Assembly (NCBI RefSeq): GCF_000380065.1
Contig: NZ_KB904376.1
Location: 1 to 64,000, forward strand
Direction: 5' to 3'
Origin: Streptococcus massiliensis DSM 18628
GTDB taxonomy: Bacteria; Bacillota; Bacilli; Lactobacillales; Streptococcaceae
Length of the DNA: 64,000 nt
Shown here: positions 15,158 to 50,080 of the stretch, in pieces
Layout: every line of letters begins with the position of its first letter
How positions within the stretch are numbered: the stretch's first letter is position 1
Notes under the pieces: model-generated
What the model was told of the DNA's origin: nothing
The model's database searches: none
Seen by the model: only the letters and a program-made list of their open reading frames with translations
Program-made: the position numbers and the translations under genes

Positions 15158-16030
15158 ATGCAAGATTTATTTCACATGGGACAGATTTTTAAGGAATTGC
15201 GGATAGGAAGAAATATATCGTTAAAAGAAGCTACAGGAGATCAATTTTCATATTCTATGCTCAGCCGATTTGAAAATGGAGAATCTGATTTATCTGCTCA
15301 GAAACTACTGGTTGCACTTGAAAATATACGTACAGACTTGTCGGAATTTGTTTATCTAGTAAGAGGTTTTAAACCAACAGCTTATACTCGTTTAAAGAGA
15401 GAAATTTGGCATTATCAGGAAAAAAAAGATCAAGAAAGTCTAACTAAATTATATGAACAAGAAATTACGAATTATCAAGCCAATCCTAAACAACCTTATC
15501 ATTTGTTGAATGCTATCCTTATCAAAGGTCATATGGTTATGTTTGATGAGAGTATTGAAGCTACGTCGGAGGAATTATCTTTCTTATATGACTATCTTTT
15601 TTCTGTTGAGATATGGGGACTTTATGAGTTGAGTTTTTTTGCGGATGTTTCGCCTCTTTTGAACTTAGATCTTTATTTTCGCTATACGAGGGAAATGTTA
15701 CAAAGAGTCGATTTTTTTGTAAGCCTAGAGGAGCATCGAACCTACATTCAATCAATTTTACTAAATGGTTTTCTTAAGTCGATTGATGAAAAGAATAGTA
15801 TGCGCGCTTCGTATTTCCAGAAGAAAATAGAGGAGTATTCTTTTACAGAAAATAGTATGTATCTCAGGACTGTACATTTATTTGCAACAGGACAGTTTGA
15901 GCACGTCAAGGGAAATCAAGCACAAGGAGTTTCTAAAATGAAAGATGCAATTCGAATCTTTCGACTATTGAACTGTACAGAAAGTGCTGATTACTATGAA
16001 GAGGGGCTGAAAGCCATATTGAAAATTTGA
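15158..16030 (+). CDS. Rgg/GadR/MutR family transcriptional regulator
   Basis: This 290-residue regulator has an N-terminal helix-turn-helix (MGQIFKELRIGRNISLKEAT to LSRFENGESDLS, residues 7-48) and a long helical repeat domain that in Rgg proteins binds peptide pheromones. GAGGAG precedes the ATG, and a TATAAT at 15128-15133 is the probable -10. It lies upstream of an MFS gene with a palindrome between them. I find no obvious hydrophobic pheromone ORF beside it. Low-GC codon use differs from the GC-richer thiamine genes, in keeping with insertion. Confidence 0.88.
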   Translation: MQDLFHMGQIFKELRIGRNISLKEATGDQFSYSMLSRFENGESDLSAQKLLVALENIRTDLSEFVYLVRGFKPTAYTRLKREIWHYQEKKDQESLTKLYEQEITNYQANPKQPYHLLNAILIKGHMVMFDESIEATSEELSFLYDYLFSVEIWGLYELSFFADVSPLLNLDLYFRYTREMLQRVDFFVSLEEHRTYIQSILLNGFLKSIDEKNSMRASYFQKKIEEYSFTENSMYLRTVHLFATGQFEHVKGNQAQGVSKMKDAIRIFRLLNCTESADYYEEGLKAILKI

Positions 16031-19575: not shown

Positions 19576-19661
19576 ACACTGTGTCTAAAAATTAATTTTA
19601 AGACTTGCAGAAATTTTCTGAAAGGGTATAATCAATTATATCAAAAATTTAGACAATGTGT
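19576..19661. promoter_or_regulatory. Candidate TetR operators flanking the YhgE/Pip promoter
   Basis: ACACTGTGTCTAAA (19576-19589) and its near inverted copy TTTAGACAATGTGT (19648-19661) flank the promoter (TTGCAG 19605-19610, 16 bases, TATAAT 19627-19632). Binding here by the divergent TetR protein is inferred from symmetry and position. Confidence 0.6.
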
Positions 19662-19678
19662 TTAAAAAAGGAGCAAAA

Positions 19679-22417
19679 ATGTTTAAAGAATGGAAGGCAA
19701 TTTTTAAAAAACCACTTTTTATTGTTGTAATGGTGGGGATCTCCCTCATTCCAGCGCTTTATAATGTGATCTTTTTGAGTTCGATGTGGGATCCATATGG
19801 GAAAGTGTCTGACTTGCCTGTCGCCGTTGTCAACAAAGATAAGGCAGCTAGCTTTAATGGTAAAGAGTTGACGATTGGTCAAAATATGGTCAAGTCGCTT
19901 AAGAAAAACGAAGCTCTTGATTATCATTTTGTTAGTGAAAAAACTGCTAAGGCGGGTTTAAAAGCGGGTGATTACTATATGGTGATTACCTTGCCGAGTG
20001 ACTTGTCGCAAAAAGCAGCTAGCATTTTGACCAGCCAGCCTGAGCAAATGACGATTGACTATCAAACCTCGAGCGGGCATAGTTTTATCGCTAGTAAGAT
20101 GAGTGATAGCGCTATGGAAAAGCTAAAGTCAACTGTTGCAAAAAATATAACTAACACTTATACAAGTAGTCTTTTTGAAAGTATGGGAACCTTGAAAGAG
20201 GGTATCAATCAAGCAGCAGGGGGAAGTACACAAATAGCTGAAGGAGCAACTCAGTTGCAGGCTGGAAGCCAGACGATTACCACAAATCTGACTACTTTAG
20301 CAAACTCTAGTCTGACTTTTCAAAATGGGGCAGATAAACTGACTACAGGGTTGACAACTTATACCGATGGGGTCAAGACTCTATCTAATGGCCTGGGAAC
20401 TCTCTCAACAGGTTTGGAACAATATACTGACGGAGTTAGTCAACTTAGCCTAGGCTTAAATCAGTTGATTCCCGGCATTAAGCAATATACAGGAGGGGTC
20501 AGTCAGCTGAATGCTGGTCTAACTGCTCTAGATGCTGCTGCGGGACAATATCAGGCAGGGTTATCCCAATATACAACTGGAGTTGGTCAACTTAGTACAG
20601 GTTTGGGAACAGTATCAACAGGCTTAAACCAGTACACGACAGGGGTAAATAATTTATCCGTGGGAGCGGCTGAGCTCAACAACCAGTCTCAACCTTTGGT
20701 AGATGGGGCAAACCAGTTGGCAGCTGGGCTTAAAAAATTGAGCGATACGGTCAACTCTAACTCTCTCACAGAAGAAGATAAGGTTCAGTTAACCAGCCTT
20801 TCGACTAGCCTGTCCAACCTGCAAAGCAGTCTAGCAAATTTACCAGACCAAGTGGGAGGGCAAAGTAATATTGCTGCTGAAATAGATAATATGATAACAA
20901 CGGCGCAGAATATTGTTACAAGTGCTCAAGCGGATCAAACAACGGTATTGACAAATATTCAGGCAACAAGCGCCTATCAGAAATTATCCGCTGATGAGCA
21001 GGCAGAACTAACAACAGCTGTGAATCATTCGCCTAGTCAAGTGGTTAGTCAAGCGCAGGCAATGATCAGTACTTTAACCAGTATGAAAACTAGTCTAGCC
21101 ACAAATACGATGACAGATCTGACAGGTCTAAAATCTTTAGTTGGTACGGCAAATACGGATACAGCTAAGCTAACGGCAATAATCAATGCTTCATCACAAA
21201 TCCAGACTGTACTTAATACTCAACTGGTTCCTGCAAGTAGCAAGCTCGCTAATGGTGTGACTAGCTATACAGCAGGTGTAGGTCAAATTACCGGTAGTGC
21301 CAATATTTTGGCAAGCAAAAATGATCAGCTGAATCAGGGTTTTGGCAATCTAGTAACGGGTGCTGGAGCCTTAGCAGCTAACAGTGCGAGCATCGCAGCA
21401 GCTACCAACCAATTAACCACAGGCATTACAACAGTGACCGATGGTTCGGCTACTCTAGCAGGTAAAAATGATCAATTGAATGCAGGAATTGGCAAAGTAG
21501 CCATGGGTGCAAATACCCTTGTGAGCAAAAATGACCAACTAACATCTGGGACAAATCAAGTAGCCGCAGGTGCGAACAAACTAGATACTAACTCAGCTCA
21601 ACTACTTTCAGGGAGTCAACAGTTGTCTGATGGGGCGACTAAAATTGCGGACGGTTCAGAAAAATTAGCAGATGGTAGCTCTACCTTGACGGATGGACTG
21701 GGAAGTCTGGTGACAGGTGCTGCTCAGCTCGGTCTTGGTTTGAGTAGCGCAGGAGACAAGCTCGGTACGGTTACTACTAAGGATAGCAATGCGGATCTGC
21801 TCGCGAATCCTCTGACCTTGAAGAAAACAGACAAAGATAATGTCGGCAAAAACGGAGTAGCTATGGCTCCATACATGCTATCGGTTGCTCTCTTTGTCGC
21901 AGCCTTATCAACCAATATGATTTTTGCAAAATTGCCGTCTGGTAAGACGCCAAGCAGTCGTAGAGAATGGCTCAGAAGTCGTCTGGAAGTCAATGGTGTT
22001 ATTGCTGTGATAGCAGGTGTTTTGGTCTATGGAGCAGTTCATTTGATCGGACTCACAGCTAATCATGAAATCAAAACTTTGCTTCTACTGGTTCTTACTA
22101 GCGTAACCTTTATGGCACTGGTAACAGCTCTAACAACCTGGAACAACAAAGTAGGGGCTTTCTTCTCCTTGATTTTACTTCTTCTTCAACTGGCATCAAG
22201 CGCCGGAACTTATCCGCTTCAGTTGACCGAAAAAATTTATCAATGGATCAACCCAATCTTGCCTATGAGCTATAGTGTATCTGGATTGCGACAAACGATT
22301 TCTATGGGCGGTGCCATTAGTGGGCAAATCACCTTCTTAACTCTTGCTTTGCTTGTTTTCGTCTTAGCTGGTTATATGGCATATAACCCTCAAAAAGCTT
22401 TAGCAGAGAATGAATAA
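19679..22417 (+). CDS. YhgE/Pip domain-containing membrane protein
   Basis: This large protein of 912 residues has a YhgE/Pip N-terminal part with one membrane segment (FIVVMVGISLIPALYNVIFL region, about 12-32). A long extracellular middle (about 190-700) follows, built of LxxG/YTxGVxxL repeats that predict extended helical or coiled structure. Five to six membrane segments lie after about residue 730. The family includes the phage infection protein of Lactococcus and EsaA-like exporters. The role here is unproven. I start at the ATG at 19679 (MFKEWKAIFKKP) after AAGGAG. Confidence 0.85.
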   Translation: MFKEWKAIFKKPLFIVVMVGISLIPALYNVIFLSSMWDPYGKVSDLPVAVVNKDKAASFNGKELTIGQNMVKSLKKNEALDYHFVSEKTAKAGLKAGDYYMVITLPSDLSQKAASILTSQPEQMTIDYQTSSGHSFIASKMSDSAMEKLKSTVAKNITNTYTSSLFESMGTLKEGINQAAGGSTQIAEGATQLQAGSQTITTNLTTLANSSLTFQNGADKLTTGLTTYTDGVKTLSNGLGTLSTGLEQYTDGVSQLSLGLNQLIPGIKQYTGGVSQLNAGLTALDAAAGQYQAGLSQYTTGVGQLSTGLGTVSTGLNQYTTGVNNLSVGAAELNNQSQPLVDGANQLAAGLKKLSDTVNSNSLTEEDKVQLTSLSTSLSNLQSSLANLPDQVGGQSNIAAEIDNMITTAQNIVTSAQADQTTVLTNIQATSAYQKLSADEQAELTTAVNHSPSQVVSQAQAMISTLTSMKTSLATNTMTDLTGLKSLVGTANTDTAKLTAIINASSQIQTVLNTQLVPASSKLANGVTSYTAGVGQITGSANILASKNDQLNQGFGNLVTGAGALAANSASIAAATNQLTTGITTVTDGSATLAGKNDQLNAGIGKVAMGANTLVSKNDQLTSGTNQVAAGANKLDTNSAQLLSGSQQLSDGATKIADGSEKLADGSSTLTDGLGSLVTGAAQLGLGLSSAGDKLGTVTTKDSNADLLANPLTLKKTDKDNVGKNGVAMAPYMLSVALFVAALSTNMIFAKLPSGKTPSSRREWLRSRLEVNGVIAVIAGVLVYGAVHLIGLTANHEIKTLLLLVLTSVTFMALVTALTTWNNKVGAFFSLILLLLQLASSAGTYPLQLTEKIYQWINPILPMSYSVSGLRQTISMGGAISGQITFLTLALLVFVLAGYMAYNPQKALAENE

Positions 22418-22420
22418 GAA

Positions 22421-22797
22421 AAGGGAGTGGGACAGCTCCAATAGTCTGGGAGACTATTGGAGGTTGTGGATAAAGCAAGCGAAGCTTGCCACAAAAAAAT
22501 GAAAAGGAATAGTTCGTCAGCTTTCTTGTTTCTAAGCTGACGTTTAAACAGTCCACTGGACTGTGTAAGGTTGCGAATAAAACAAGCAAGGCTTGTGTCA
22601 AAATCCGGAGTCTGTAAAGACGAACGAAGCTTCAAGGCATTCAATGAATGACTTGAAAAAAGGAAGAGACCTGAAGCAGGAAGCTCACGAAGATTGAGTG
22701 AGCGTTTAGCGTAAGGAACTCTGACGCGGCTACCGCGTCTTGCAGATAATCCGAATTAATTTTAGAGGCTAAGAACTATTGTCCCAGCCTCTTTTTA
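22421..22797. repeat. Dispersed streptococcal repeat element, copy 1
   Basis: The 377-base gap after the YhgE gene begins GGGAGTGGGACAG and ends TTGTCCCAGCCTC, giving inverted ends. It includes a hairpin (CTCCAATAGTCT…AGACTATTGGAG, 22437-22463) and shares the segments AAAAGGAATAGTTCGT and GGCTACCGCGTCTTG with the element at 51201-51377. It has no convincing ORF. Its right end overlaps the stop of the rgg pseudogene and may act as a terminator. Confidence 0.75.
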
Positions 22798-23633
22798 GGT
22801 ATAATCTTGTATTTCTCTTTGCAGTTGATTAACAAGAGCTGTCTCATTGGTTAATTCTAATAGTTGCACTCCTTTATTAATTAAGGCTCTATCTTTCGTG
22901 CAAATTCCAATCCGAACTTGGGAAAAACCTAATTGATCATAACGTTTTTGTTCAAGAGCAAGATCGAATGCTTGTTGGCTCAATTCTAAGCATTTATCTT
23001 TATGGGCATTATAAAGGTAAATTGTTGCTAATTAGAGAGAATAGAGAAATGAACTTTTTGTAAATCTATATAGTCACGATAACGAGCTAAACTATCTAAA
23101 ATTTTTCCAGTCGTCTCCTGAATAGTTTCAAAATCAAAAGAATAAAGGATGGCTCCTAGCATACGTAAGTCACTTTCATACCAAGTATCTCGTCTTTTCA
23201 AATCTTGCCAGATAATATCAGCTAGTTGATAGGCTTTTTCAGAAGGACCATTGGTGCGAATTTCTATGAAAACTCTAACTAAATTTAAAACATTTTGGAT
23301 TGGCAGATCTTCCATTTCTTGTAGATATTCTTCGCAAAGTTGAGCAATTTCTTTTAGCTCATCTGTATCTACTGCAGAGGAGTATTTGGATATTCTGACG
23401 AGGATATTTTTTCTTTTGCTTGGCTTGTAATAGTTGCAGATGTAGTCAAATTCTCCGAAGGTCATATCAATCTGTCGTAAAAGGTGTTCCATAAGTTCGT
23501 AACTAGGAACATCTTTATTTTTTTCGATATTAGATAAATGTCCTCTGGAACAAAAATTACCAGCTGCTTGGCTTTGTGAAATTCCTTTAGATTTACGAAT
23601 CTTTTGATAGACTTGACCGAAATCCCATCTCAT
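22795..23633 (-). pseudogene. Rgg-family regulator, disrupted by a frameshift
   Basis: The N-terminal 201 residues (HTH start MRWDFGQVYQKIRKSKGISQ) read from an ATG with AGGAG upstream and stop at 23028. The remaining 78 residues of an Rgg C-terminal domain (LATIYLYNAHKDKC to LQREIQDYT) continue in another frame down to 22795. Restoring one base near 23026-23030 would give a protein of about 279 residues, the normal length. The truncated form would lack the end of the pheromone-binding domain. It is divergent from the Trp-rich peptide gene. Confidence 0.85.
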
Positions 23634-23659
23634 ACATTATCTCCTGAAACAAAAATGCG

Positions 23660-23672
23660 TGTATTTTATACA
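23660..23672. promoter_or_regulatory. Palindrome between rgg and the Trp-rich peptide gene
   Basis: TGTAT-TTT-ATACA lies in the 95-base divergent gap. On the minus strand it overlaps a TATAAA -10-like box for rgg. It is a candidate operator, inferred only from symmetry and position. Confidence 0.4.
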
Positions 23673-23728
23673 TATTTAGCGAAAGAGTTACCTTGATGTT
23701 ATTATATAGAAAAAAGGAGGCAAAGTCT

Positions 23729-23818
23729 ATGAAAAAAGGGAAATGGTTCAATATTTTGTCACTCTTATTAGTGATAGTAACCCTTTTAGGCGAGGGTTGG
23801 CCGTGGTGGCCATGGTGA
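23729..23818 (+). CDS. 29-residue Trp-rich peptide, candidate Rgg-associated pheromone precursor
   Basis: An ATG with AGGAGG 8 bases upstream encodes a peptide with a basic start (MKKGKWF), a hydrophobic core (NILSLLLVIVTLL) and the C-terminus GEGWPWWPW. This layout matches short hydrophobic peptides encoded beside rgg genes. The tryptophan cluster recalls the WW motif of ComS/XIP and the Trp-X-Trp motif reported for RtgS. The mature signal is probably within the last 8-9 residues. It is divergent from the rgg pseudogene, as in many Rgg pairs. No computed hit supports this; the call is by structure and context. Confidence 0.72.
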   Translation: MKKGKWFNILSLLLVIVTLLGEGWPWWPW

Positions 23819-23869
23819 TATAAAAGGCAAGGAAAGATAGGTGAGTCCAACGGACAGTTGAGATTAGAT

Positions 23870-24147: not shown

Positions 24148-24315
24148 ATGAAAAAAAAGAATGTAATGTTTTGGGGATTTCTTATATTGCTGGCATTTAA
24201 TGTGTTTTTACTTTATTCAGGGATTGTAGTTAAGAATGTATTTTTAATATTATCAAGTATAACATTAATAATGGTTTCTCTTGTAAGCTTGAGAAATATA
24301 TTAAGGAGATTTTAA
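24148..24315 (+). CDS. Small two-helix membrane protein, 55 residues
   Basis: A GGAGG site 7 bases upstream of the ATG and a promoter at 24067-24095 support expression. The peptide begins MKKKNVMFWGF, has two hydrophobic stretches (about 8-24 and 30-48) and a basic end, NILRRF. Its size fits immunity-like or accessory peptides of bacteriocin and Rgg loci, but I see no diagnostic motif. Confidence 0.55.
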   Translation: MKKKNVMFWGFLILLAFNVFLLYSGIVVKNVFLILSSITLIMVSLVSLRNILRRF

Positions 24316-24437
24316 GTCAAATCAAGACAGATGAGCTTTATCAGAAACTTCTTTCAGTTCTGAACAACAGCCGCAAGTACTATGCGGAAATTCTCACTCG
24401 CCGCAAAGGAAAAGAAATGAAAGAAATAACGGAATAA
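24284..24437 (+). pseudogene. C-terminal remnant of an unidentified gene
   Basis: In a second frame overlapping the end of the 55-residue gene, an open stretch encodes a charged helical tail (KLEKYIKEILSQIKTDELYQ at its start, ending RRKGKEMKEITE) with no usable start codon. It ends shortly before a terminator. It looks like the 3' end of a deleted gene joined to the small membrane gene. The parent family is not recognised. Confidence 0.4.
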
Positions 24438-24664: not shown

Positions 24665-25387
24665 ATGGCAAAGAAGACTTTTAAAGACAAATTTCAGCGG
24701 TTTGAAACCAAATATGTCATTTCCAAGGAAACGCTGGTGCTTTTGTTGGCAGAATTTGAGGGGAACATGTTAGAGGATGAGCATGCCTACTCGACTATCG
24801 GCAATCTCTACTATGATACACCAACCTATCAGATGATTCGTGAATCTTTGGAGAAACCGTATTTTAAAGAAAAATTGCGTGTGCGAACCTATGACGCAGA
24901 TCCGATAGAGAACAGTCAGGTATTTTTAGAAATCAAGAAGAAAGTACGCAAGATTGTCTACAAACGGCGGATAGCAACTGACTTGTTGAGAGCAGAGAGT
25001 TATCTAGCAGGGCGTGAAGTTTGCCTTGATGATTCGCAAATCAAAGAAGAAATTGACTGGTTGTGTGAGCGTTATGGTGGTGTGCAACCTATGATGTATA
25101 TTTACTACAATCGCTATTCTATGAAAGGAAAAGAAGATGAAAATGTTCGGATCACGATTGATCACGATGTGACCTACCGAAATTATGATTTGAGTCTTTT
25201 GGACGGAAGGCATGGTCAAGCACTTTTGCCGGATAATCATGTCATCATGGAAATCAAGGTGCCGGGAGCTTATCCACTTTGGCTGAGCGAGATTTTAGAT
25301 CGTCATCGGGTTTTTCCTAAATCTTTTTCCAAGTACGGCGTCGCTTATAAGAAAATAAGTCATCAAATGCCAGTCGGAGCGCGCTAA
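24665..25387 (+). CDS. VTC-domain protein (polyphosphate polymerase-like)
   Basis: This 240-residue protein has the tunnel-fold signature of VTC domains: FETKYVISKE at the start, YYDTPTY (about 48), KLRVRTY (about 70), LEIKKKVRKIVYKRR (about 87), a YNRYSM strand, and MEIKVPG near 200. In eukaryotes VTC4 polymerises polyphosphate from ATP. In bacteria this domain occurs with DUF4956 and surface proteins, where its product is not established. It is the first gene of a three-gene set. Confidence 0.85.
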   Translation: MAKKTFKDKFQRFETKYVISKETLVLLLAEFEGNMLEDEHAYSTIGNLYYDTPTYQMIRESLEKPYFKEKLRVRTYDADPIENSQVFLEIKKKVRKIVYKRRIATDLLRAESYLAGREVCLDDSQIKEEIDWLCERYGGVQPMMYIYYNRYSMKGKEDENVRITIDHDVTYRNYDLSLLDGRHGQALLPDNHVIMEIKVPGAYPLWLSEILDRHRVFPKSFSKYGVAYKKISHQMPVGAR

Positions 25388-41088: not shown

Positions 41089-44000
41089 ATGAAGAAAAAA
41101 GGCAGTATATTTTTAGTTCTGATTCTGCTTATGAACACAATTTTACAAGGAGTGAGTGGTGCTTCTCTTGCCTTCGCACAAGAACAGACCAGCCCGTCTT
41201 CTGCTCTAGTAAGTAATCCTGCTGAAACTGCCAAAAAAGAAGACTCGGAAAGTTCTAGTAGTGAAACTCAGAAAAGCACTGTCAACGAGAGTCAGGAAAC
41301 CCCTAGTAGTTCTAGTCAAGAAAGTAGCAGCTCAACGAGCCAAACGACTTCAGCTGCGGCTAAATCAGAAGATGATGACGCTGCATTACCACCGGGACCT
41401 CCTCCTACGCCAACGGCAACAGTTCCAACTGTCACGATAAAGCCAAATACAAAGACGGCTTATCGTACAGATGAACAGATTACCACTTATGTGGATATTG
41501 ATGGAACTAGTTTAACCTCAGACATAGAAGAACCTTATCTAGATATTGAAATGCCAACCACTCTATATCAGGGCGGTAAGGTGCTGAACACAGATGCTTA
41601 TCTAGATAACTTTACAGTTCCGACCGAAGGTATCACTCTAATCAAAAGTGCAGAAAAAGTAGTGGAAAATGGGAAGACGATTTATCGTATTCGTTTCAAT
41701 TCCATTACATCAACAACCAAGATTAGCATACCTTATGTTTTTAGCTTTACAAACGGGTTAGTTCCAAAAGACTATAAGCTACGACCAAAGGTTACTCTTA
41801 AGGATAAGAATGGTGGAGTTCTATACACAGGAAATGATCAGGAGTATACTCCAACTTATCCAAATATGAACCTAACAAAGGTAGTTGCTACTAGTAGCGA
41901 AGATGGTCAGCTTCTCTACGGAGGGACAGCTAAGACAGGAGATTCGACTAGGATTTCTGAAACCGGTGCAGAGCCTATACCGTTCAGTTTCACCTATCAA
42001 GTGCAGGCGAATTCAGGTCAGCAGCGGATGATGAAAAAAGTCGTCATCAAGGATACGCTACCGACTTATACGAATAGTCAGGGTCAAAAGGTTACTGCTA
42101 AATTTGACCAAGCCCTTAATCCTGGCTGGACTTACGATAGTAGCACTGGCACAGTGACCTATACAAAGGAATTCTTAGAAAGTGAATTTGATACGGACTT
42201 CCGTCACAATATTGACGTCAGTAAGGCTATGTTGTACCTATCTTTTCCAGATGCTAAGTACAAAGACGGCAACAACAAACCTAATTTTACAAATAAGGCG
42301 GATATCACAGCAACTCCTTTCAATCCATCGCCAAATGAAGAATATAAAAATAGTGACGATATAACTTTTAATCTCATTGCAGATGATTTCAGTGGGACGG
42401 GGCTTCTTTCCAAGAGGACAGAACACCAGACGGTGCAACACGATGTAGCTGGACTTTACGCACAGCGACTAGACTATACAGTCAAGGTAGAAAACAAGCT
42501 ATCAAAACCGATGCAAGAGATCACTCTGGTTGAAGATGCCAGCAAGTTTGACTCAAGACTGTATTTCACTAGTGTTGATTCTTTCTTTGAAAGACAAGGC
42601 TCAAATAGTAAACCTATCAATGATAAGATGGAAATACGTGCCTATAAGAGCGATGGAACTTATGACACTTTTGCTCCGGGGGATCAAATTAATAAGGATG
42701 CACAAGACGAACTAAATGCTGCGGCTGAAAAGATCCGAAATGGTGAGTTAACGGAAGCAGCAGTACCGGCGGTTACTCCAAAATATACTAAAATAACCAT
42801 CCACTTTATTAAGGGCTATGAATTACCAGTTGGAAAGTACATTGATGGTTTCGTCTATATGGCTTTTAAAGACCCTTATCATGTTCCTTATTCTGCTGCA
42901 AAGGATATAAAAAATGTGGTCGGTCTTGAAGCGAAAGTGAAAAACTCTCAAAATCAAGATGTTCCAATTAATATATCCGATGAATGGAACAAACAGTTTG
43001 TACCATTTGTAGAAAAGATTCGTCTATCAAAGAATACAGATGGACAAACTTCAGGTATTGAGGGAGAATCAGTCTTCTTCCTATTGGGATTGAATTTTGA
43101 ACAGCTTTCTAAAGCACGCTACCTAAAGAATCCAACGCTTGTTGATCTTCTTCCTAAGGGGGTTAGTATTGCACCAGGTGTAGACAAAACAAAAGCGGAA
43201 GATATGCTCGAAGCAATTGGGCTAGCAAATCTGGCCATGATTGATAAATTTTCAGTCATTGAAAACTACAATGGTAGTGGTCGGACAGCGATCAAAATCA
43301 AATTAAAATCAGGTCTGGTAAAAGACTTAAATAACGGGACAGGTTATGCTTTCAAACTAAAGGGATTAAAAATCAATAGTGACATTATCCCAAGTAAGGC
43401 AGAGACCTCGACCTTCAATAACACGAATGAACTTTATTTCTACCAAGACAATGGTCAACCGTTCCCGGATGCCATTCATTCCGATTCAAATCAGATTGTG
43501 GATGACGAAAGAGACATCAATATGAATGGTGACACTACGGACAAGGTCGTAAAGGCAACTTCAGAGGTTATAGGGAATGTAACAGAAAGTCTGCAGAGTG
43601 TTAAGATGATCCGTAGCACAGAACCATTGGTTGAAGGTGGAGCTTTGTACTATGGCAGGTCTTTCACCAAGGGTGAGATTGAAACAGATTACAGTGGTAT
43701 AATTAATAATTCGGGTCACTTCCAATATGACCTGCAAGTGCGAAATTACTACGATCGTGATCTGACAAGAGTAGAAATCTACGATGTTCTTCCTCATGTT
43801 GGAGACAGCGGTCGGACGACTGCGGGTGGTGCCGAATCTGCCTTTTCAAACACCTTGACAGGCCCAATCACTGTGAAAGTTGGTGATAAAGATAAGACGG
43901 CAGATTTTGATATTTACTATCGAACAGATAAATATCCAACCATGAATGCTGCTACAGAGGTAAATAGTTCAAATTGGACAAAGAATCCAGGCGACTACGA

Positions 44001-45015
44001 AAAAGTAACAGCGATCAAGATTGTTTCTAAAACGGGAACGGTCATTCATAAGTACACCATTTTGCATGCAATTCTAAATATGAAAGCTCCGGCTTATGAC
44101 AAGAATAACAATGTTGGTGGCAAGACGGCTGTTAATACTTTCCAAGTAAAATATAATACCGAACCAAAATTTGGTGAATCTAATGTAGTTACCAATAAAG
44201 TCAACAAGCGGATTACCATTCCGGTTGAGAAGAAGTGGCGTGACTCTGAAACAACACATTCTAAAATAACGGCACAGCTCTACGCGACTTGGAAGGAAGA
44301 CGGTGTTGCAAAAGAAGAGCTTAAAGAGGAAAAAGAGCTCTCTGGAAACAATAACTGGAAAGACACCTTTAGCCCGATACCAGATGAGGAATCTGCTACG
44401 AAACTATTACAAAAAGAAGCAGCAGAGAAGAAAATCACCGACTTTAAATACGTGGTCAGGGAAAAGGAGATTCCGCCTGAATATGATGTCGATTACAGTG
44501 GTGACGCTCGGAATGGCTTTGTCATCACCAACACGAGGTATCCGTCAATCAAGACCCAGAAGCTCTGGTATGACAAGGACGGCAATCAGATTACAAATGA
44601 CCAGCTACCTAAGAAACTAGAGGTTAAGTTGTACCGGACAACGGACGGACAAACTCAAAACGGAGAGCTTGTTGAGACAATTCAGTTGGAACGAACTGCA
44701 GCGGCTCCATATCTCTGGGAATCTACAAAACGCTACCCACCTAAGGATAAGACCACCGGTAAGTACTATACCTACTACATTGAAGAGGTTGTTCCAAAGT
44801 ATTACTTAGAGATCAGTAATGCGTCTGAAAAGAAAGTAACCTTTACGGATGCAAATGTCGGAGAAACAGCAACCTTGACGGTGAAGAACAAGGTGAACCC
44901 GACTTATCCAAATACGGGTGGCTCAGGTATCCTACCATATATTTTGATGGGAACTTTAACATTAACATTGGCAGCAATTTTACATTATATGCAAAAAAAT
45001 AGAAAGGCTTTTTAG
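41089..45015 (+). CDS. Large ancillary pilin / surface protein with cell-wall sorting signal
   Basis: This 1308-residue surface protein has a signal peptide (1-31), a Ser/Thr-rich linker (32-95) and a proline run (LPPGPPPTP). A long region of adhesin-like beta domains follows. Two Cna_B-type domains lie near the C-terminus (about 1040-1150, KWRDSETTHSKI, and 1150-1265, TQKLWYDKDG). A sorting signal YPNTG at about 1273, a hydrophobic segment and a KNRK tail end the protein. I see no von Willebrand MIDAS motif. It is first in the pilus operon and is probably the tip or accessory pilin. GGAGAG precedes the ATG. Confidence 0.88.
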   Translation: MKKKGSIFLVLILLMNTILQGVSGASLAFAQEQTSPSSALVSNPAETAKKEDSESSSSETQKSTVNESQETPSSSSQESSSSTSQTTSAAAKSEDDDAALPPGPPPTPTATVPTVTIKPNTKTAYRTDEQITTYVDIDGTSLTSDIEEPYLDIEMPTTLYQGGKVLNTDAYLDNFTVPTEGITLIKSAEKVVENGKTIYRIRFNSITSTTKISIPYVFSFTNGLVPKDYKLRPKVTLKDKNGGVLYTGNDQEYTPTYPNMNLTKVVATSSEDGQLLYGGTAKTGDSTRISETGAEPIPFSFTYQVQANSGQQRMMKKVVIKDTLPTYTNSQGQKVTAKFDQALNPGWTYDSSTGTVTYTKEFLESEFDTDFRHNIDVSKAMLYLSFPDAKYKDGNNKPNFTNKADITATPFNPSPNEEYKNSDDITFNLIADDFSGTGLLSKRTEHQTVQHDVAGLYAQRLDYTVKVENKLSKPMQEITLVEDASKFDSRLYFTSVDSFFERQGSNSKPINDKMEIRAYKSDGTYDTFAPGDQINKDAQDELNAAAEKIRNGELTEAAVPAVTPKYTKITIHFIKGYELPVGKYIDGFVYMAFKDPYHVPYSAAKDIKNVVGLEAKVKNSQNQDVPINISDEWNKQFVPFVEKIRLSKNTDGQTSGIEGESVFFLLGLNFEQLSKARYLKNPTLVDLLPKGVSIAPGVDKTKAEDMLEAIGLANLAMIDKFSVIENYNGSGRTAIKIKLKSGLVKDLNNGTGYAFKLKGLKINSDIIPSKAETSTFNNTNELYFYQDNGQPFPDAIHSDSNQIVDDERDINMNGDTTDKVVKATSEVIGNVTESLQSVKMIRSTEPLVEGGALYYGRSFTKGEIETDYSGIINNSGHFQYDLQVRNYYDRDLTRVEIYDVLPHVGDSGRTTAGGAESAFSNTLTGPITVKVGDKDKTADFDIYYRTDKYPTMNAATEVNSSNWTKNPGDYEKVTAIKIVSKTGTVIHKYTILHAILNMKAPAYDKNNNVGGKTAVNTFQVKYNTEPKFGESNVVTNKVNKRITIPVEKKWRDSETTHSKITAQLYATWKEDGVAKEELKEEKELSGNNNWKDTFSPIPDEESATKLLQKEAAEKKITDFKYVVREKEIPPEYDVDYSGDARNGFVITNTRYPSIKTQKLWYDKDGNQITNDQLPKKLEVKLYRTTDGQTQNGELVETIQLERTAAAPYLWESTKRYPPKDKTTGKYYTYYIEEVVPKYYLEISNASEKKVTFTDANVGETATLTVKNKVNPTYPNTGGSGILPYILMGTLTLTLAAILHYMQKNRKAF

Positions 45016-45026
45016 GAGGCAAAACA

Positions 45027-46511
45027 ATGAAAAACGTAAAACGATATTTCCTCTCGTTCTTAGCAGCTCTTAGTATCGTGCTTTTAGCACTTGGAGCAGT
45101 TAAAACCTTTGCGGAAGACAACACACCGGGTGAAAACGACACTTATGATGTTGTTTTGACTAAAGTCAAATTGACAGACTTAAGTAAATGGAATGCTCCA
45201 ACAGGAACAACTACTGGTCTTGATGGCAGCTCTTACACAGGTCAAAAACTAGACCGCGCTAAATATTTCGGTACAACTGAAACATTGGCAAATGTTTGGT
45301 TTGATGTCTACAAAGACACTCCAACAGGTACTCCTGTAGCTGGAAAAGCAACAGGAGCAGATGGTACAGTTACATTTACCGGTCTCAAAGCTGGTAAATA
45401 CTATATCGTTGAAAACAAAGCAAAATCAACACTTACTTCAGATGAACAATTGGCTAACTCAGCTGCTGTTCCTGTGGAAATCAATCTTCCAGTCTTCAAA
45501 GCTGAAGGTGGATGGTACACAACTGGTACTGACGCTGTTCACGTTTATCCAAAGAATACCGTTGACAAACCAAGTATTAACAAAGTAGTTAGCGAAGACG
45601 CTAAACACGATACTGCTCTTGTTGGTGAAACAAAGACCTTCAAGGTCACTTCTACAATGCCAGAAGGTATTAAAGACTATAAAGTTTTAAAATTCACCGA
45701 TACATTCACAGCAGGTTTGACTTACACAGGCAACCTTGTTGTTAAAAAAGGTGACACTGTTGTAGCTCCTTCTAACTATTCAACTGATGGTACGTCTGTA
45801 GCTGGTACAAAAGCCGCAACAATCAATGTTGCCTTCAAAGAAGATTACATCAAAACACTATCTCCAAAAGATGTTATCACTATTACTTATAACGCAGTCA
45901 TCAATGAAGACGCGGTTATGGGTGCAGCCAACCCCAATGATGTTAAGTTGACTTATGGTACTAACCCAGATTCAACAAAAGAAGTTAAACCTAATGAAAA
46001 ACCAGAACTCCACACTGGTGGTGCTAAGTTTGAAAAAGTTGACAAAGCGACATCAGCTAAACTTGCAGGGGCTAAGTTTGTTGTTACAAATGCAGAAGGC
46101 AAATATTTGAAAGTGACTGATGCAACCGCAACAACTATTGCGAAAAACGAGTGGATTGAAGCTACAGATGCTAAGGCTGCTGTTACTGCAGGTGCGAAAG
46201 TCTTCACGTCAGCTTCTAATGGTACTTTTGAAGTTAAGGGGCTTCCTTATGGTGTAAAAGGAGATGACAACACCACTGGTGAAACTAAGTACAAATTGGT
46301 CGAAGTTGAAGCACCAAATGGTTATGCTTTGTTGCAACAACCAGTTGAGTTCACTATCTCATCAACAACTTACACTGGTAAAATTAACCAAGTAAACAAC
46401 AACAAGGTAACAATTCCACAAACAGGTGGTATCGGTTCAGCTCTCGTGATTGCAGCTGGTGTCTTGGTTGTTGGTTTAGGTTTCATTGCGAAACGTCGTT
46501 CAGCTAAGTAA
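45027..46511 (+). CDS. Major (backbone) pilin
   Basis: This 494-residue protein has a signal peptide (1-30). The pilin motif lysine lies in VHVYPKN near residue 177. A fimbrial isopeptide D2-type domain (FTDTFTAGLTY) and an E-box (YKLVEVEAPNGYALL, about 431) follow, then sorting signal IPQTG at about 463 with membrane segment and KRR tail. Class C sortases join the YPK lysine to the threonine of IPQTG of the next subunit. Codon use is strongly biased, as in highly expressed genes. It starts 11 bases after the ancillary pilin. Confidence 0.93.
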   Translation: MKNVKRYFLSFLAALSIVLLALGAVKTFAEDNTPGENDTYDVVLTKVKLTDLSKWNAPTGTTTGLDGSSYTGQKLDRAKYFGTTETLANVWFDVYKDTPTGTPVAGKATGADGTVTFTGLKAGKYYIVENKAKSTLTSDEQLANSAAVPVEINLPVFKAEGGWYTTGTDAVHVYPKNTVDKPSINKVVSEDAKHDTALVGETKTFKVTSTMPEGIKDYKVLKFTDTFTAGLTYTGNLVVKKGDTVVAPSNYSTDGTSVAGTKAATINVAFKEDYIKTLSPKDVITITYNAVINEDAVMGAANPNDVKLTYGTNPDSTKEVKPNEKPELHTGGAKFEKVDKATSAKLAGAKFVVTNAEGKYLKVTDATATTIAKNEWIEATDAKAAVTAGAKVFTSASNGTFEVKGLPYGVKGDDNTTGETKYKLVEVEAPNGYALLQQPVEFTISSTTYTGKINQVNNNKVTIPQTGGIGSALVIAAGVLVVGLGFIAKRRSAK

Positions 46512-46523
46512 TAAAATGAAGAA

Positions 46524-46585
46524 GTAAGGACAATCCTTACCTCTTCACTAGGGTATTTAAAACAGTTAAATATCCTAGTGAAGAG
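46524..46585 (+). other. Strong intercistronic hairpins between backbone and minor pilin genes
   Basis: A 7-bp hairpin (GTAAGGA/TCCTTAC, 46524-46540) is followed by a 20-bp stem (46541-46560 with 46566-46585, one G-T pair, loop AACAG). No T-run follows, so a processing or stability role, or partial termination, is more likely than full termination. Confidence 0.8.
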
Positions 46586-46613
46586 TGCAAGTGCTATGTT
46601 TTAGGAGGATACT

Positions 46614-47549
46614 ATGACAAGAAAAAGAACATTGAGCAGTCTGCTATCCATACTCACGACCATTGTTATTTTGGTAACTTTACGACCATTTACAACCGTT
46701 TCATCTCAGGAAAATCAAGCCTCATCAGATGCAACCTACGATATTGTTTTAACCTTGGTTAAGTTAAAAGATTTGAATGGTTGGCCTAAAGGTGGAGGAA
46801 AAGATAGTTATTCTGGGCAGCCTTTAGATATTGAGAATTATTTTGGCAGTGAAGCCTCAACCATTGATGGCGTTGCCTTTGACATCCATAAGGATAAGGC
46901 AGACGGAGAGCTTGTTCAAACAAAGATAACTGAAAATGGCGGTCGGCTCACCTTTAGTGGTTTGAAAGCTGGAAAATACTATATCGTCGTTAATAAAGAA
47001 AAATCAAAGTTAGTAGGAAATCAGACGTTGGGTGATGCGACACCAGTTCCATTAGAAGTGGAATTGCCTGTGACCAAACCCGACGGTAGCTATTTCACGG
47101 TAGGAAATGACGCCGTCCATGTCTATCCCAAACAGGTTTTAAAACAGAGAGAGGACAAGACCAGCTTTAAAGTTCAGAAAGAATGGAAAGGTAAAAAGTT
47201 AAATAGTATCACTGTTCATCTCAAACAAAATGGGCAAGTCATTGATGAAATTGAGTTGAATGACAGCAATAACTGGGAACATACCTTTATGAACTTGGAA
47301 AAAGCAGATGCGGCAGGGAAAGACTACACCTACACAGCTGAAGAAGATGTTCCTAATGGCTATACAGCGACTTATAAAAACATGACAGATAAAATTGGCA
47401 CTGTGATTACCAATACTCTGGTACCACCGACATCACCAAGGACACCGATTATCAAAACGGGGACCTTAGCCATTTATTGGTTTTTAGGAATTGCCATCGT
47501 TTTAATCGGACTAGGATATAAGCTTTATAAAAGCGAGAAAAAACACTGA
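46614..47549 (+). CDS. Minor pilin (putative base pilin) with cell-wall sorting signal
   Basis: A 311-residue protein with a signal peptide (1-32) and an N-terminal domain clearly related to the backbone pilin (TYDIVLTLVKL… and the YPK motif VHVYPKQ near 173). A Cna_B domain (FKVQKEWKGKKLNSITVHLK, about 182-262), a proline-rich stalk, sorting signal IIKTG near 280 and a lysine-rich tail follow. Size and position fit a base pilin that ends polymerisation and anchors the fibre. AGGAGG precedes the ATG. Confidence 0.88.
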   Translation: MTRKRTLSSLLSILTTIVILVTLRPFTTVSSQENQASSDATYDIVLTLVKLKDLNGWPKGGGKDSYSGQPLDIENYFGSEASTIDGVAFDIHKDKADGELVQTKITENGGRLTFSGLKAGKYYIVVNKEKSKLVGNQTLGDATPVPLEVELPVTKPDGSYFTVGNDAVHVYPKQVLKQREDKTSFKVQKEWKGKKLNSITVHLKQNGQVIDEIELNDSNNWEHTFMNLEKADAAGKDYTYTAEEDVPNGYTATYKNMTDKIGTVITNTLVPPTSPRTPIIKTGTLAIYWFLGIAIVLIGLGYKLYKSEKKH

Positions 47550-47567
47550 TTCATCAGTGTTTTTTTA
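47537..47567. terminator. Bidirectional terminator between pilin and sortase operons
   Basis: AAAAAACACTGA / TCAGTGTTTTTT is a perfect palindrome with a TTCA loop. It contains the stop codons of both convergent genes, which end only 4 bases apart. Confidence 0.92.
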
Positions 47568-48399
47568 TGATATTCCATAGTCGCTTGGTGAAAAAGAGAA
47601 AAATCGCTGTTCCGACAATCACAATTAAATAGGGGGCTAGCCTTTGTAATTTGAAACCAAGTTTAATATGTTGGTTGCTAACAAAGGGAATCAAGGGATT
47701 AGTAGATACATTTTGCTTTTTTTCACTATCTGAAATAACTCTTTTTGCATTGACAAGGAGCCGTTTGTCATAGCTTGGTTCGTTCATACAGGTCATGAGC
47801 GTAACCATGTCTTCGTTTTCGATTGGTTTAAGTTTTTCGCCTTCGTATTCATCGATGACCTCGCCATCGGTCACTTCGTATTCTAGATTTTTTCCAAGAA
47901 TATCGAAATAAATTTTATCTCCTTTTTTGAGAGAGGGGAGAAGGTAGAAAGATATGCCATTATAATTAATTCTATGTCCTGCGATAATCGGTCGCTGTCC
48001 TTTTATACCCAAGGGAGCAGATGTTCCGACGAGAGTCGCTACGCCCTTTAGGAGCTTATCATAGTCAGCGTCAAGATAGAGGTCGAATTGTTGTCCCAAA
48101 GCAGGAATGGTCATGCGTCCGGCGACTTGATTGGTATCTAGCAGATCTGAGTAGGGCGTTTTTTGCTTGGTATCAATATCTTTTTTTGTTAGGAAAATAT
48201 CTTGGATAGCTCCGGTGACGGTGGTTTGTTCCACAGCTGTTCGTAGTTTTTGGAATGTTTCCTCGCTGGTCTGCTGATAGGTGCGCTGAGCATTGGATTG
48301 CCAAATGTCCTCTTTAATCATAGATAAAAAAGGAAAGAGGAAGAGTGCAATTCCAATTAACAGGAGGCTCAGCCCAAGTAATTGTTTTTTCTTTTTCAT
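47554..48399 (-). CDS. Sortase, third gene of the pilus sortase operon
   Basis: A 281-residue membrane sortase with an N-terminal anchor (about 5-27), catalytic histidine in IIAGHRINYNG (about 143), TLMTC with the catalytic cysteine near 202, arginine in KRLLVNAKR, and a C-terminal membrane helix. Unlike the two upstream sortases it lacks a clear DP-aromatic lid motif, so it may attach pili to the wall or process the minor pilin. Its start overlaps the upstream gene's stop by 4 bases. Confidence 0.88.
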   Translation of the reverse strand: MKKKKQLLGLSLLLIGIALFLFPFLSMIKEDIWQSNAQRTYQQTSEETFQKLRTAVEQTTVTGAIQDIFLTKKDIDTKQKTPYSDLLDTNQVAGRMTIPALGQQFDLYLDADYDKLLKGVATLVGTSAPLGIKGQRPIIAGHRINYNGISFYLLPSLKKGDKIYFDILGKNLEYEVTDGEVIDEYEGEKLKPIENEDMVTLMTCMNEPSYDKRLLVNAKRVISDSEKKQNVSTNPLIPFVSNQHIKLGFKLQRLAPYLIVIVGTAIFLFFTKRLWNIIKKH

Positions 48400-49250
48400 G
48401 AAAGTGATGTTTCTTTTCCTTTCTTTCTTAACATTTTAAAGAGTAGATAGCCTAAAAGTAGGAGGATGAGTCCGGCAGCAAGAAAGATAAACCATTTGTA
48501 TTGGGCAAAAAAGTCAATCTTTGTTTTTTTCTCCTTTTCAGCTTCGTGGAAAGGTATGCGTTTGCCTTGAACGAGTAGGCGATGAGAATTGATCATATAA
48601 GGTGTGCAAGTCAAAAGAGTGGCACGATCTTCGCCTTCTTTAACCAGTATTGGTTTGAAATCAGTGGGCTCAACAGTTAAAATCTTATCTACCTGATAAG
48701 CCAAGGTTTCCTTGATATTGGTGATGTAAAAGACATCTCCGACCTTTACCTTATCCAAGTCGGTGAAAAGTCTAGCTGTGGGAAGTCCTCTGTGGGCGGT
48801 GATGACCGTATGGGTGCTAACTCCACCGACGGGTAGGCTGGTTCCTTCTAAGTGGCCTGCTCCGTTTTGCAAGACGTTTTCAGATGACCCTGCCCGAATG
48901 GGAATTTTTTGATTGATAGAAGGGATAGTGACATAGCCAATTTTTTCTTGCAGTTGCAACATGCGAGCATACTCGGCTACGCCTTCCTCTTTTTTCCTGC
49001 TTGAGAAAGGATCTCCTATTTTTTCTGGGGACAAGGTGCTGTTATAGGCTTTAGCGAGTTCAATACGATTTTCAACATCTTGATCAACTAGTTTGCTCTT
49101 CTCGTTGTCAAATTGCTTTGTTTCTTGCATAGTCACATATTGATAATAAATCTGACTGACAAAGGGATAACAGATCATCAAGCACCCCAGAATGGTAAGT
49201 ATCTTATAGGTTAGTCGCAGCCATTTTTGGTTTTTCTTTTTTCTTGTCAT
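48396..49250 (-). CDS. Class C (pilus) sortase, second gene
   Basis: A 284-residue sortase with an N-terminal membrane anchor, a lid motif DPF (in KIGDPFSSR), histidine in VITAHRGLP, cysteine in LLTCTPYMINSHRLLVQG and a C-terminal membrane helix. The lid is typical of class C pilin polymerases. I take the ATG at 49250. A GTG at 49283 would overlap the upstream sortase further and has no better ribosome site. Confidence 0.9.
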   Translation of the reverse strand: MTRKKKNQKWLRLTYKILTILGCLMICYPFVSQIYYQYVTMQETKQFDNEKSKLVDQDVENRIELAKAYNSTLSPEKIGDPFSSRKKEEGVAEYARMLQLQEKIGYVTIPSINQKIPIRAGSSENVLQNGAGHLEGTSLPVGGVSTHTVITAHRGLPTARLFTDLDKVKVGDVFYITNIKETLAYQVDKILTVEPTDFKPILVKEGEDRATLLTCTPYMINSHRLLVQGKRIPFHEAEKEKKTKIDFFAQYKWFIFLAAGLILLLLGYLLFKMLRKKGKETSLS

Positions 49251-49261
49251 GATAGATCTTT

Positions 49262-50080
49262 CTATGCTTTTTTCGATTTCCACTTATTCCAAGCCAAAAT
49301 AATGAAAATGAGAAATAGAATTGCGAAAACGACTAGATAAAGCGGTGGAATAGAAATATGACTAATCGGACTTTTCACTTTTTCTTCACTTGGTTTGTAA
49401 GGGATACGGTGACCCCGCACAAGTAAACGGTGTGAATTAATCATATAAGGAGTACAGGTCAGCAGAGTCACATAGTCTTTGTCAGGTACAATATTTAGAG
49501 AGTCAAACTGGGTCGGCTCAATCACCGTTATGGAATCAACCTCGTAGGCAAGTGTTTCAGCGATATTTTGAATGAAAAACTTATCGCCCACCTTCATTTT
49601 ATCCAAGTCAGTGAAAAGGCGGTTGTTGGGCAAGCCCGTGTGGGCAGTTAGAACAGTGTGGGTGTTCTGCCCGCCAATCGGCAAACTGGTCCCTTCTAAG
49701 TGCCCCACTCCTTTTTGTAAAACTTCTTCACTTGAACCGGCATAGATTGGTAAGTCAACATCAATTTTGGGAATGGAAATTCTACCTATTTTTTCATGAA
49801 CAGTCAGCATTCGAGCATATTCCGCCTGTCCCTTAGCGTTTTCTTCTTTGGTATAGGGATCTGTTATTGCCAAATTTTGCAAAGAACGATTGTAGGCAGT
49901 AGCTAGCTTTATCCGTTCCGTCACATCTTCAGAAGTTAATTTTTGTGCAGACGAGTCAAAGTCCTTAACCTCTTGTTTGGTCTGGTAATTGTAATAAATT
50001 TGGCTAATAACAGGGTAGCTGATGATGAGGATACCGGCTATAATCGTTAAGTTTGTCAATAAATTAAAAAATTTTTTCAT
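49262..50080 (-). CDS. Class C (pilus) sortase, first gene
   Basis: This 272-residue polymerase has an N-terminal anchor (about 8-30), lid motif D74-P75-Y76, histidine in VLTAHTGLP, cysteine in LLTCTPYMINSHRLLVRG and a C-terminal membrane helix. It is the promoter-proximal gene of the sortase operon and closely related to the second gene, a likely duplication. AAAGGG precedes the ATG. Confidence 0.92.
   Translation of the reverse strand: MKKFFNLLTNLTIIAGILIISYPVISQIYYNYQTKQEVKDFDSSAQKLTSEDVTERIKLATAYNRSLQNLAITDPYTKEENAKGQAEYARMLTVHEKIGRISIPKIDVDLPIYAGSSEEVLQKGVGHLEGTSLPIGGQNTHTVLTAHTGLPNNRLFTDLDKMKVGDKFFIQNIAETLAYEVDSITVIEPTQFDSLNIVPDKDYVTLLTCTPYMINSHRLLVRGHRIPYKPSEEKVKSPISHISIPPLYLVVFAILFLIFIILAWNKWKSKKA

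What the first reader, a model, noticed from the sequence alone, without database searches (positions are those of the whole stretch)
23633..23818. Tryptophan-cluster micro-peptide divergent from an rgg gene: candidate pheromone system
Seen: a 29-codon ORF with a strong AGGAGG site, basic start, hydrophobic core and the C-terminus GEGWPWWPW, divergent from an rgg reading frame across 95 bases holding the palindrome at 23660-23672. Known: Rgg regulators are often paired with short hydrophobic pheromone genes; ComS/XIP peptides carry WW, and RtgS peptides are reported to carry Trp-X-Trp. Inference: this is a related precursor with an unusually dense aromatic tail (four Trp and two Pro in six residues), perhaps a separate pherotype.
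Basis: partly seen in the sequence, partly recalled or inferred. Interest (0 to 1): 0.85.

Follow-up and report, generated by a model that had tools for sequence, protein, structure and literature searches.

The report
Tryptophan-tailed Rgg pheromone gene, decaying locus
A streptococcus carries a tiny gene for a tryptophan-rich signal peptide of an already proposed family (Rgg/WxW), but its receptor gene is frameshifted and most of the genes it probably controlled are gone.

Summary
The 29-codon ORF is real (23729-23818). It is the only one of 86 SD-bearing 20-40-codon ORFs in the window with two or more Trp in its last eight residues. Divergent from rgg homologues, 36 of 109 other loci carry such an ORF. 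The nearest relatives, including S. anginosus and S. intermedius, hold the locus beside the same VTC-domain gene, mostly with PW tails such as PWWPPFGI. This fits the "Rgg/WxW" pheromone group proposed in 2020 (RtgR/RtgS, Rgg1518, SSA_2251; PMC7018657): a new member with a new tail. Unexpected: many of these loci share a second element behind the pheromone stop, an extended Shine-Dalgarno plus a 2-14-codon ORF (21 of 37 loci against 0 of 1240 controls, with a consensus taken from these loci). The window keeps it at 23839-23854 with ACG for ATG. It resembles the negative regulator rio83 in position, not in sequence.

The parts
23729..23818 (+). WxW pheromone precursor ORF, 29 aa, MKKGKWFNILSLLLVIVTLLGEGWPWWPW
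   Evidence: position and tail class shared with relatives
23713..23720 (+). Shine-Dalgarno of the pheromone ORF (AAAGGAGG)
   Evidence: read from the sequence
23028..23633 (-). rgg, first frame, 201 aa: HTH plus the first part of the helical repeat domain
   Evidence: predicted all-helical fold, pLDDT 80.2, pTM 0.56; Foldseek hits Rgg2, Rgg144, ComR, PlcR with TM-scores (query) of about 0.3-0.5
22801..23031 (-). rgg, C-terminal part in another reading frame (frameshifted)
   Evidence: tblastn 48% identity over 77 aa to the C-terminus of G012's Rgg
23653..23675 (.).
   Evidence: aligned with boxes of relatives; scores 2.3 bits against 8.5-24.9 in the loci the matrix was built from
23839..23854 (+). 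Second conserved element AGGTGAGTCCAAcGGA: RBS and start region of a micro-ORF; ACG at 23850-23852 where relatives have ATG
24148..24315 (+). 55-aa membrane-like ORF with a strong SD, no convincing relative; possible remnant or replacement of a cargo gene
24285..24422 (+). 3' stub of a DUF6261 gene; a 252-aa frame in four of the five syntenic relatives
   Evidence: tblastn 72% identity over 46 columns; frames; family from the G004 protein
24665..25387 (+). VTC-domain gene, syntenic flank marker

Best explanation
The ORF encodes the precursor of an Rgg/WxW-type pheromone with a cytoplasmic receptor. By analogy with RtgS, the precursor would be exported by PptAB, trimmed to about its last 8-10 residues (around EGWPWWPW), re-imported by Ami and bound by the divergently encoded Rgg, which would then activate the pheromone promoter and the bacteriocin-like operon behind it. 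In this genome the locus is decaying: rgg is frameshifted, the operator match is poor, the micro-ORF start differs and most of the cargo is deleted. The cell may still make the signal but probably cannot answer it. Shown here: homology, position, synteny, the second element, the broken frames. Inferred: export, processing, binding, regulation.
For: Position and Trp tail shared with 36 of 109 other rgg loci. Synteny with G018, G280, G004, G076 and G056. The profile of ten regulators hits solved Rgg2, ComR and PlcR. Family-level matches for an EcsB-type exporter, oligopeptide-binding proteins and a TIGR00054 protease in the own genome. The second element is kept. Relatives carry a lactococcin-972 family gene (L123) and an ABC gene closest to L_ocin_972_ABC but below its cut-off (L085). 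Published function of RtgS and rio84 (PMC7018657 sections 14 and 7 read; PMC9426450 section 7 read).
Against: No transcript or peptide data. The exact tail was seen in no other genome, so this ORF itself has no direct conservation test. The operator match is weak: P 0.079 anywhere in the intergenic stretch, 0.0015 at the same place. Tail and receptor covary, but tail and DNA-binding domain do so as much (r 0.84 and 0.83 over 34 pairs), so phylogeny explains it. The tree places the window rgg near the anginosus-type loci only weakly. 73 of 109 other loci show no such W ORF by my criteria.
Confidence: 0.82

Rival explanations
1. The ORF is a relic: it descends from a WxW pheromone gene, but the whole locus is dead, the peptide is no longer made, and the sequence is merely young enough to look intact. 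(This overlaps with the best explanation and differs only on whether the signal is still made.)
For: rgg frameshift and cargo loss, weak operator, ACG in the micro-ORF start. In G056 the pheromone itself is broken.
Against: The pheromone ORF, its SD and a -10-like stretch are intact. Three of the six syntenic loci (window, G004, G076) keep a whole pheromone ORF while the rgg frame is broken; only one (G056) shows the reverse. Six loci are too few to settle it.
Confidence: 0.35
2. Tryptophan-attenuation leader peptide: the Trp codons sense charged tRNA-Trp.
For: Four Trp codons at the end of a short ORF with a strong SD.
Against: No trp or aromatic gene was recognised downstream: a 55-aa ORF, a DUF6261 stub and a VTC gene follow. 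The W tail goes with divergent rgg across the genus.
Confidence: 0.02
3. ComS/XIP-type competence pheromone.
For: WW in the tail and an acidic residue before it, as in some XIPs (table in PMC13361665, passages seen).
Against: Divergent arrangement, unlike ComS (PMC7018657); ComR_TPR is matched by 1 of 10 regulators, at E 0.13 only; relatives sit at bacteriocin-like loci.
Confidence: 0.03

Closest known systems
RtgR/RtgS of S. pneumoniae (PMC7018657)
   Same: Short precursor divergent from its rgg, W-x-W near the C-terminus, inverted repeat in the promoter, peptide-export cargo; rtg-type loci L066, L073, L112 and others are in my set
   Different: RtgS lacks Asp/Glu (as the paper says); the window tail has Glu at -8 and two W-P-W units; start at +96 from the rgg ATG here against about +184 in the rtg-type loci; receptor broken here
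SSA_2251 and its predicted pheromone, S. sanguinis SK36 (PMC7018657 discussion)
   Same: A PWWW-type tail; in the S. sanguinis loci L085 and L114 (and the similar L120) the ORF lies divergent at +89/+90
   Different: Different tail; receptor frames of 269-282 aa and cargo genes present in those loci. SK36 itself was not examined.
Rgg1518 with rio84 and rio83 (PMC9426450)
   Same: WxW pheromone divergent from rgg; a micro-ORF starts 43 nt after the pheromone stop in L254 and L255; similar box and -10 placing
   Different: rio83 has a plain AAAGGAGG RBS, not the AGGTGAGTCC element (best match 6 mismatches), and L256 has no rio83 there

Membership tests
Rgg/WxW pheromone group | Short ORF with basic start, hydrophobic core and W-x-W near the C-terminus | tested here: met
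   W24-P-W26 and W27-P-W29
Rgg/WxW pheromone group | Divergent from an RtgR-like rgg | tested here: met
   95-bp divergent spacing; regulator at most 55% identical to homologues, many of them at W-tailed loci
Rgg/WxW pheromone group | Intact cognate regulator | tested here: not met
   frameshift near codon 201; speaks against a working circuit in this genome, not against the peptide's kinship
Rgg/WxW pheromone group | Inverted-repeat operator in the pheromone promoter | tested here: inconclusive
   same position, weak match of 2.3 bits
Rgg/WxW pheromone group | Pheromone-controlled cargo operon next to it | tested here: not met
   only a DUF6261 stub and a 55-aa orphan lie before the VTC gene
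Rgg/WxW pheromone group | Export by PptAB and import by Ami | tested here: inconclusive
   EcsB-family and SBP_bac_5 genes present, orthology not shown
Rgg/WxW pheromone group | C-terminal peptide activates the cognate Rgg | not testable with these tools
   needs a bench assay
Rgg/SHP (classical) | Asp/Glu in the mature peptide, and a regulator of the RGG_Cterm family | tested here: inconclusive
   Glu present at -8; the truncated regulator scores 15.5 bits against a cut-off of 36.9
ComR/ComS | ComR-type TPR domain | tested here: not met
   PF18710 matched by 1 of 10 regulators, best E 0.13
trp attenuator leader | trp operon downstream | tested here: not met
   no such gene recognised
RaS-RiPP precursor | radical SAM enzyme beside it | tested here: inconclusive
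   none recognised by eye in the ORF lists; not every neighbour was scanned against a library

The most novel reading that the evidence does not exclude
Many WxW pheromone transcripts carry, 10-38 nt behind the pheromone stop, a dedicated minigene: a strong, extended ribosome-binding site driving an ORF that is only two codons long in 8 of the 11 lineages I grouped by eye. The conserved thing is the ribosome landing site, not a peptide. It acts as a ribosome-based brake or pacing device on the quorum-sensing operon, as the differently built rio83 may do in D39, and the window shows one losing its start codon along with its receptor.
Probability: 0.25. Interest if true: 0.75.

Novelty: new member of a known kind. 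Interest (0 to 1): 0.5.

Why it matters
It extends the Rgg/WxW group, proposed from three cases in 2020, to many W-tailed peptides across the genus at a conserved divergent position. It gives a syntenic series in which receptor, signal or cargo is lost separately, useful for asking how quorum-sensing bacteriocin-like loci decay. The shared minigene-like element behind many of the pheromones offers a way to test, in several systems, whether the unexplained negative effect of rio83 has a general counterpart.

Tried and rejected
Palindrome as evidence: rejected, not above chance. Mantel test for receptor-tail coevolution over 34 unique pairs: r 0.84 (P 0.0005) for the TPR part but 0.83 for the HTH part, so uninformative beyond phylogeny. 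First tree with two distant Rggs as outgroup: unusable; the outgroups had branches near 10 and the row called OUT_L139 was a wrong, MFS-like frame; rebuilt without them, placement still weak. 55-aa ORF: matches in 32 other genomes at E up to 0.1, the best 3.5e-4 at 32% identity, none convincing. Consensus RNA structure around the second element in 16 sequences: none found. Bacteriocin or thioredoxin remnant between pheromone and stub: no convincing match. Rgg1518-like peptides in the 109 rgg loci: none recognised; the motif scan printed five other W.W-type frames (L121, L167, L171, L196, L218) that I did not follow.

Rows left out: of the 139 non-window rows typed's table I fetched 80; one search's answer shows and withholds further rows that I did not type. 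29 more loci came from the 80, the other 51 being duplicates. The W-ORF criteria miss some members: G156, four loci with FFPWGWLL tails and G183 came up only through the second element. For one search I added six loci with a single Trp by hand to those with two or more, and collapsed identical stretches.

Full report
What is there. Of 86 SD-bearing ORFs of 20-40 codons in the 64-kb window, it is the only one with two or more Trp among its last eight residues; it has four.

The regulator. The rgg frame holds 201 aa; most homologues have about 280-300. The rest lies in another frame at 22801-23031, 48% identical to a relative's C-terminus over 77 aa. The two parts meet near 23028-23031, so the gene is split by a frameshift; intact copies exist in relatives. 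Whether this is real or an assembly error cannot be told here. Pfam sees HTH_3, and Rgg_C only below its cut-off. A profile of ten homologues hits solved Rgg2, ComR and PlcR. The predicted fold (pLDDT 80.2, pTM 0.56) has Foldseek hits to a Listeria regulator, Rgg2, Rgg144, ComR and PlcR, with modest TM-scores of about 0.3-0.5.

Conserved linkage. tblastn with the 201 aa gave matches at E 1e-20 or better in 136 of 284 genus genomes, the own one included. At +60 to +220 from the rgg start, on the divergent strand, 69 SD-bearing small ORFs were found; 36 have two or more Trp in the last eight residues and 15 have three or more. Elsewhere in the same loci the figures are 25 and 1 of 1495 (Fisher 1.6e-37 and 1.5e-20). 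The loci are related, many of them rtg-type copies, so these P values overstate independence. By locus, 36 of 109 have such an ORF; the Markov null gives 0.0006 per locus. Examples: PWEWWWL (G160), VLPWWWSWW and ALPWWWPWR (S. sanguinis), EDWWRWLWPF (G134), IPWWPPFP (G012), FPWWPPFGI (G018, and G076 = S. intermedius SK54), FPWKWPI (rtg-type). L112 ends in AIIFPWGWPI, the RtgS type A sequence printed in PMC13361665 (passages seen).

Synteny and decay. In G018, G280, G004, G076 and G056 (G056 = S. anginosus J4206, G076 = S. intermedius SK54, the others unnamed) an rgg 52-55% identical to the window's lies beside the same VTC-domain gene. Behind the peptide, a Cys-containing bacteriocin-like frame is listed in three of the five (G004, G018, G076), a thioredoxin-like lipoprotein in the same three (shortened in G076), a 95-aa membrane ORF in G018 (shorter in G076), and a 252-aa DUF6261-type frame in four (not G076). 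G280 shows a different 43-aa ORF, and G056 has lost both the peptide and most of the interval. The window's interval from the rgg start to the VTC gene is 1.0 kb instead of 2.0-3.2 kb and keeps only a DUF6261 stub (24285-24422) and an orphan 55-aa ORF. In the six syntenic loci the rgg frame is open in G018, G056 and G280 and broken in the window, G004 and G076; the pheromone ORF is whole in all but G056.

Promoter. The short-spacing W loci share an ATGT..ACAT-type inverted box at about +15 to +30 from the rgg start, followed by a TATNAT-like stretch; the rtg-type loci align there with a different sequence, AAAAGTTAACAAA... The window has a poor match at +20: 2.3 bits against 8.5-24.9 in the loci the matrix was built from, a comparison that favours those loci because the window was not among them. 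P is 0.0015 at that position and 0.079 anywhere, and the palindrome alone is matched in 277 of 500 shuffles. PMC7018657 reports an inverted repeat needed for RtgS induction (section 7 read).

Cargo in relatives. Of eight small cargo proteins given to Pfam or NCBIfam, one (L123) had a hit, lactococcin 972, over the cut-off. An ATPase in L085 is closest to L_ocin_972_ABC but under its cut-off (235.2 against 254.85); L112 has a C39-peptidase transporter. "Bacteriocin-like" for the others rests on size, signal-like start and neighbours.

A second element. Behind many of these pheromones lies AGGTGAGTCC(A/G)ATG with a micro-ORF of 2-14 codons. With two or fewer mismatches in the 120 nt after the pheromone stop it is in 21 of 37 unique W or PW loci other than the window, 10 of them rtg-type and 11 others, against 0 of 1240 stretches behind long ORFs (Fisher 4.6e-36). 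The consensus was taken from these same loci and the loci are related, so the P value is only a guide. The reverse test: the exact pattern occurs 25 times in 284 genomes, its reversed control twice. By the script's criteria 16 of the 25 lie 10-38 nt behind a W-tailed ORF with a divergent rgg. A seventeenth (G183) lies at L128's rgg, whose 14-aa W-tailed ORF fell under the length cut-off. Six follow another, 47-aa peptide without an rgg found within 500 nt, and two have no ORF by my criteria. Grouping by eye, the micro-ORF is exactly two codons in 8 of 11 lineages (7 of 10 if L084 and L207 are one). The chance of at least 7 of 11 is 4.3e-6 if lineages are independent. L123, L206 and rio83, which have micro-ORFs of 6-7 codons without the consensus, are not in that count; with them it is 8 of 14. 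The window has the element at 23839-23854, 20 nt behind the stop, with ACG in place of ATG; it is the only match in 64 kb, expected 0.03, with a pattern that I widened after seeing the window. No common RNA structure was found. rio83 in D39 is a 7-codon ORF at the same place, translated and apparently a negative regulator, though synthetic Rio83 does nothing (PMC9426450 section 7 read). It starts 43 nt after the pheromone stop in L254 and L255, is absent from L256, and lacks the element's consensus. Against a general rule: 16 of the 37 loci do not have the element at this threshold.

Known or new. PMC7018657 (passages, and sections 14 and 7) proposed Rgg/WxW pairs as a distinct group from three systems, so the kind is known. 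Seven searches of the held open-access library (RtgS/Rgg/tryptophan, Rgg/WxW/pheromone, SSA_2251, anginosus/Rgg, RRNPP/double tryptophan, rio83/Rgg1518, micro-ORF/leader peptide) showed no report of this tail or of the shared second element in the listings. Of the listed papers I saw parts of four: PMC7018657, PMC9426450 (passages, section 7, first part of the discussion), PMC13361665 (passages) and PMC7595303 (passages). So absence in print is only weakly supported.

Organism. The genome is 1.86 Mb in 84 contigs.

Noticed in passing
23839-23854; also L064, L066, L081, L084, L120, L124, L207 and others: AGGTGAGTCC(A/G)ATG element with a 2-14-codon ORF behind WxW pheromone genes; six further exact copies follow a different 47-aa peptide ending GIDTGAYYSPG or ..SPS (G101, G125, G158, G200, G268, G272).
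   Followed up: partly
15158-16030: A second, intact Rgg-family regulator (Rgg_C and TIGR01716 over cut-off) followed by an MFS transporter; another Rgg at C40:9295 of the same genome (L139) also has a long MFS-like frame nearby. No W-tailed small ORF in the gaps scanned next to the first.
   Followed up: partly
22436-22462: Perfect 12-nt inverted repeat with 3 nt between the arms, in the stretch of about 380 bp between the large membrane-protein gene (19658-22417) and the rgg remnant; looks like a streptococcal intergenic repeat (recalled, not tested).
   Followed up: no
41089-50080: Three surface-protein-like ORFs followed by three sortase-like ORFs on the other strand, a pilus-type island by eye.
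   Followed up: no
L061 and L060 (G076, G004); L058 (G056): rgg frame stops at codon 3 and codon 27 while the pheromone ORF stays whole; in L058 the reverse.
   Followed up: yes
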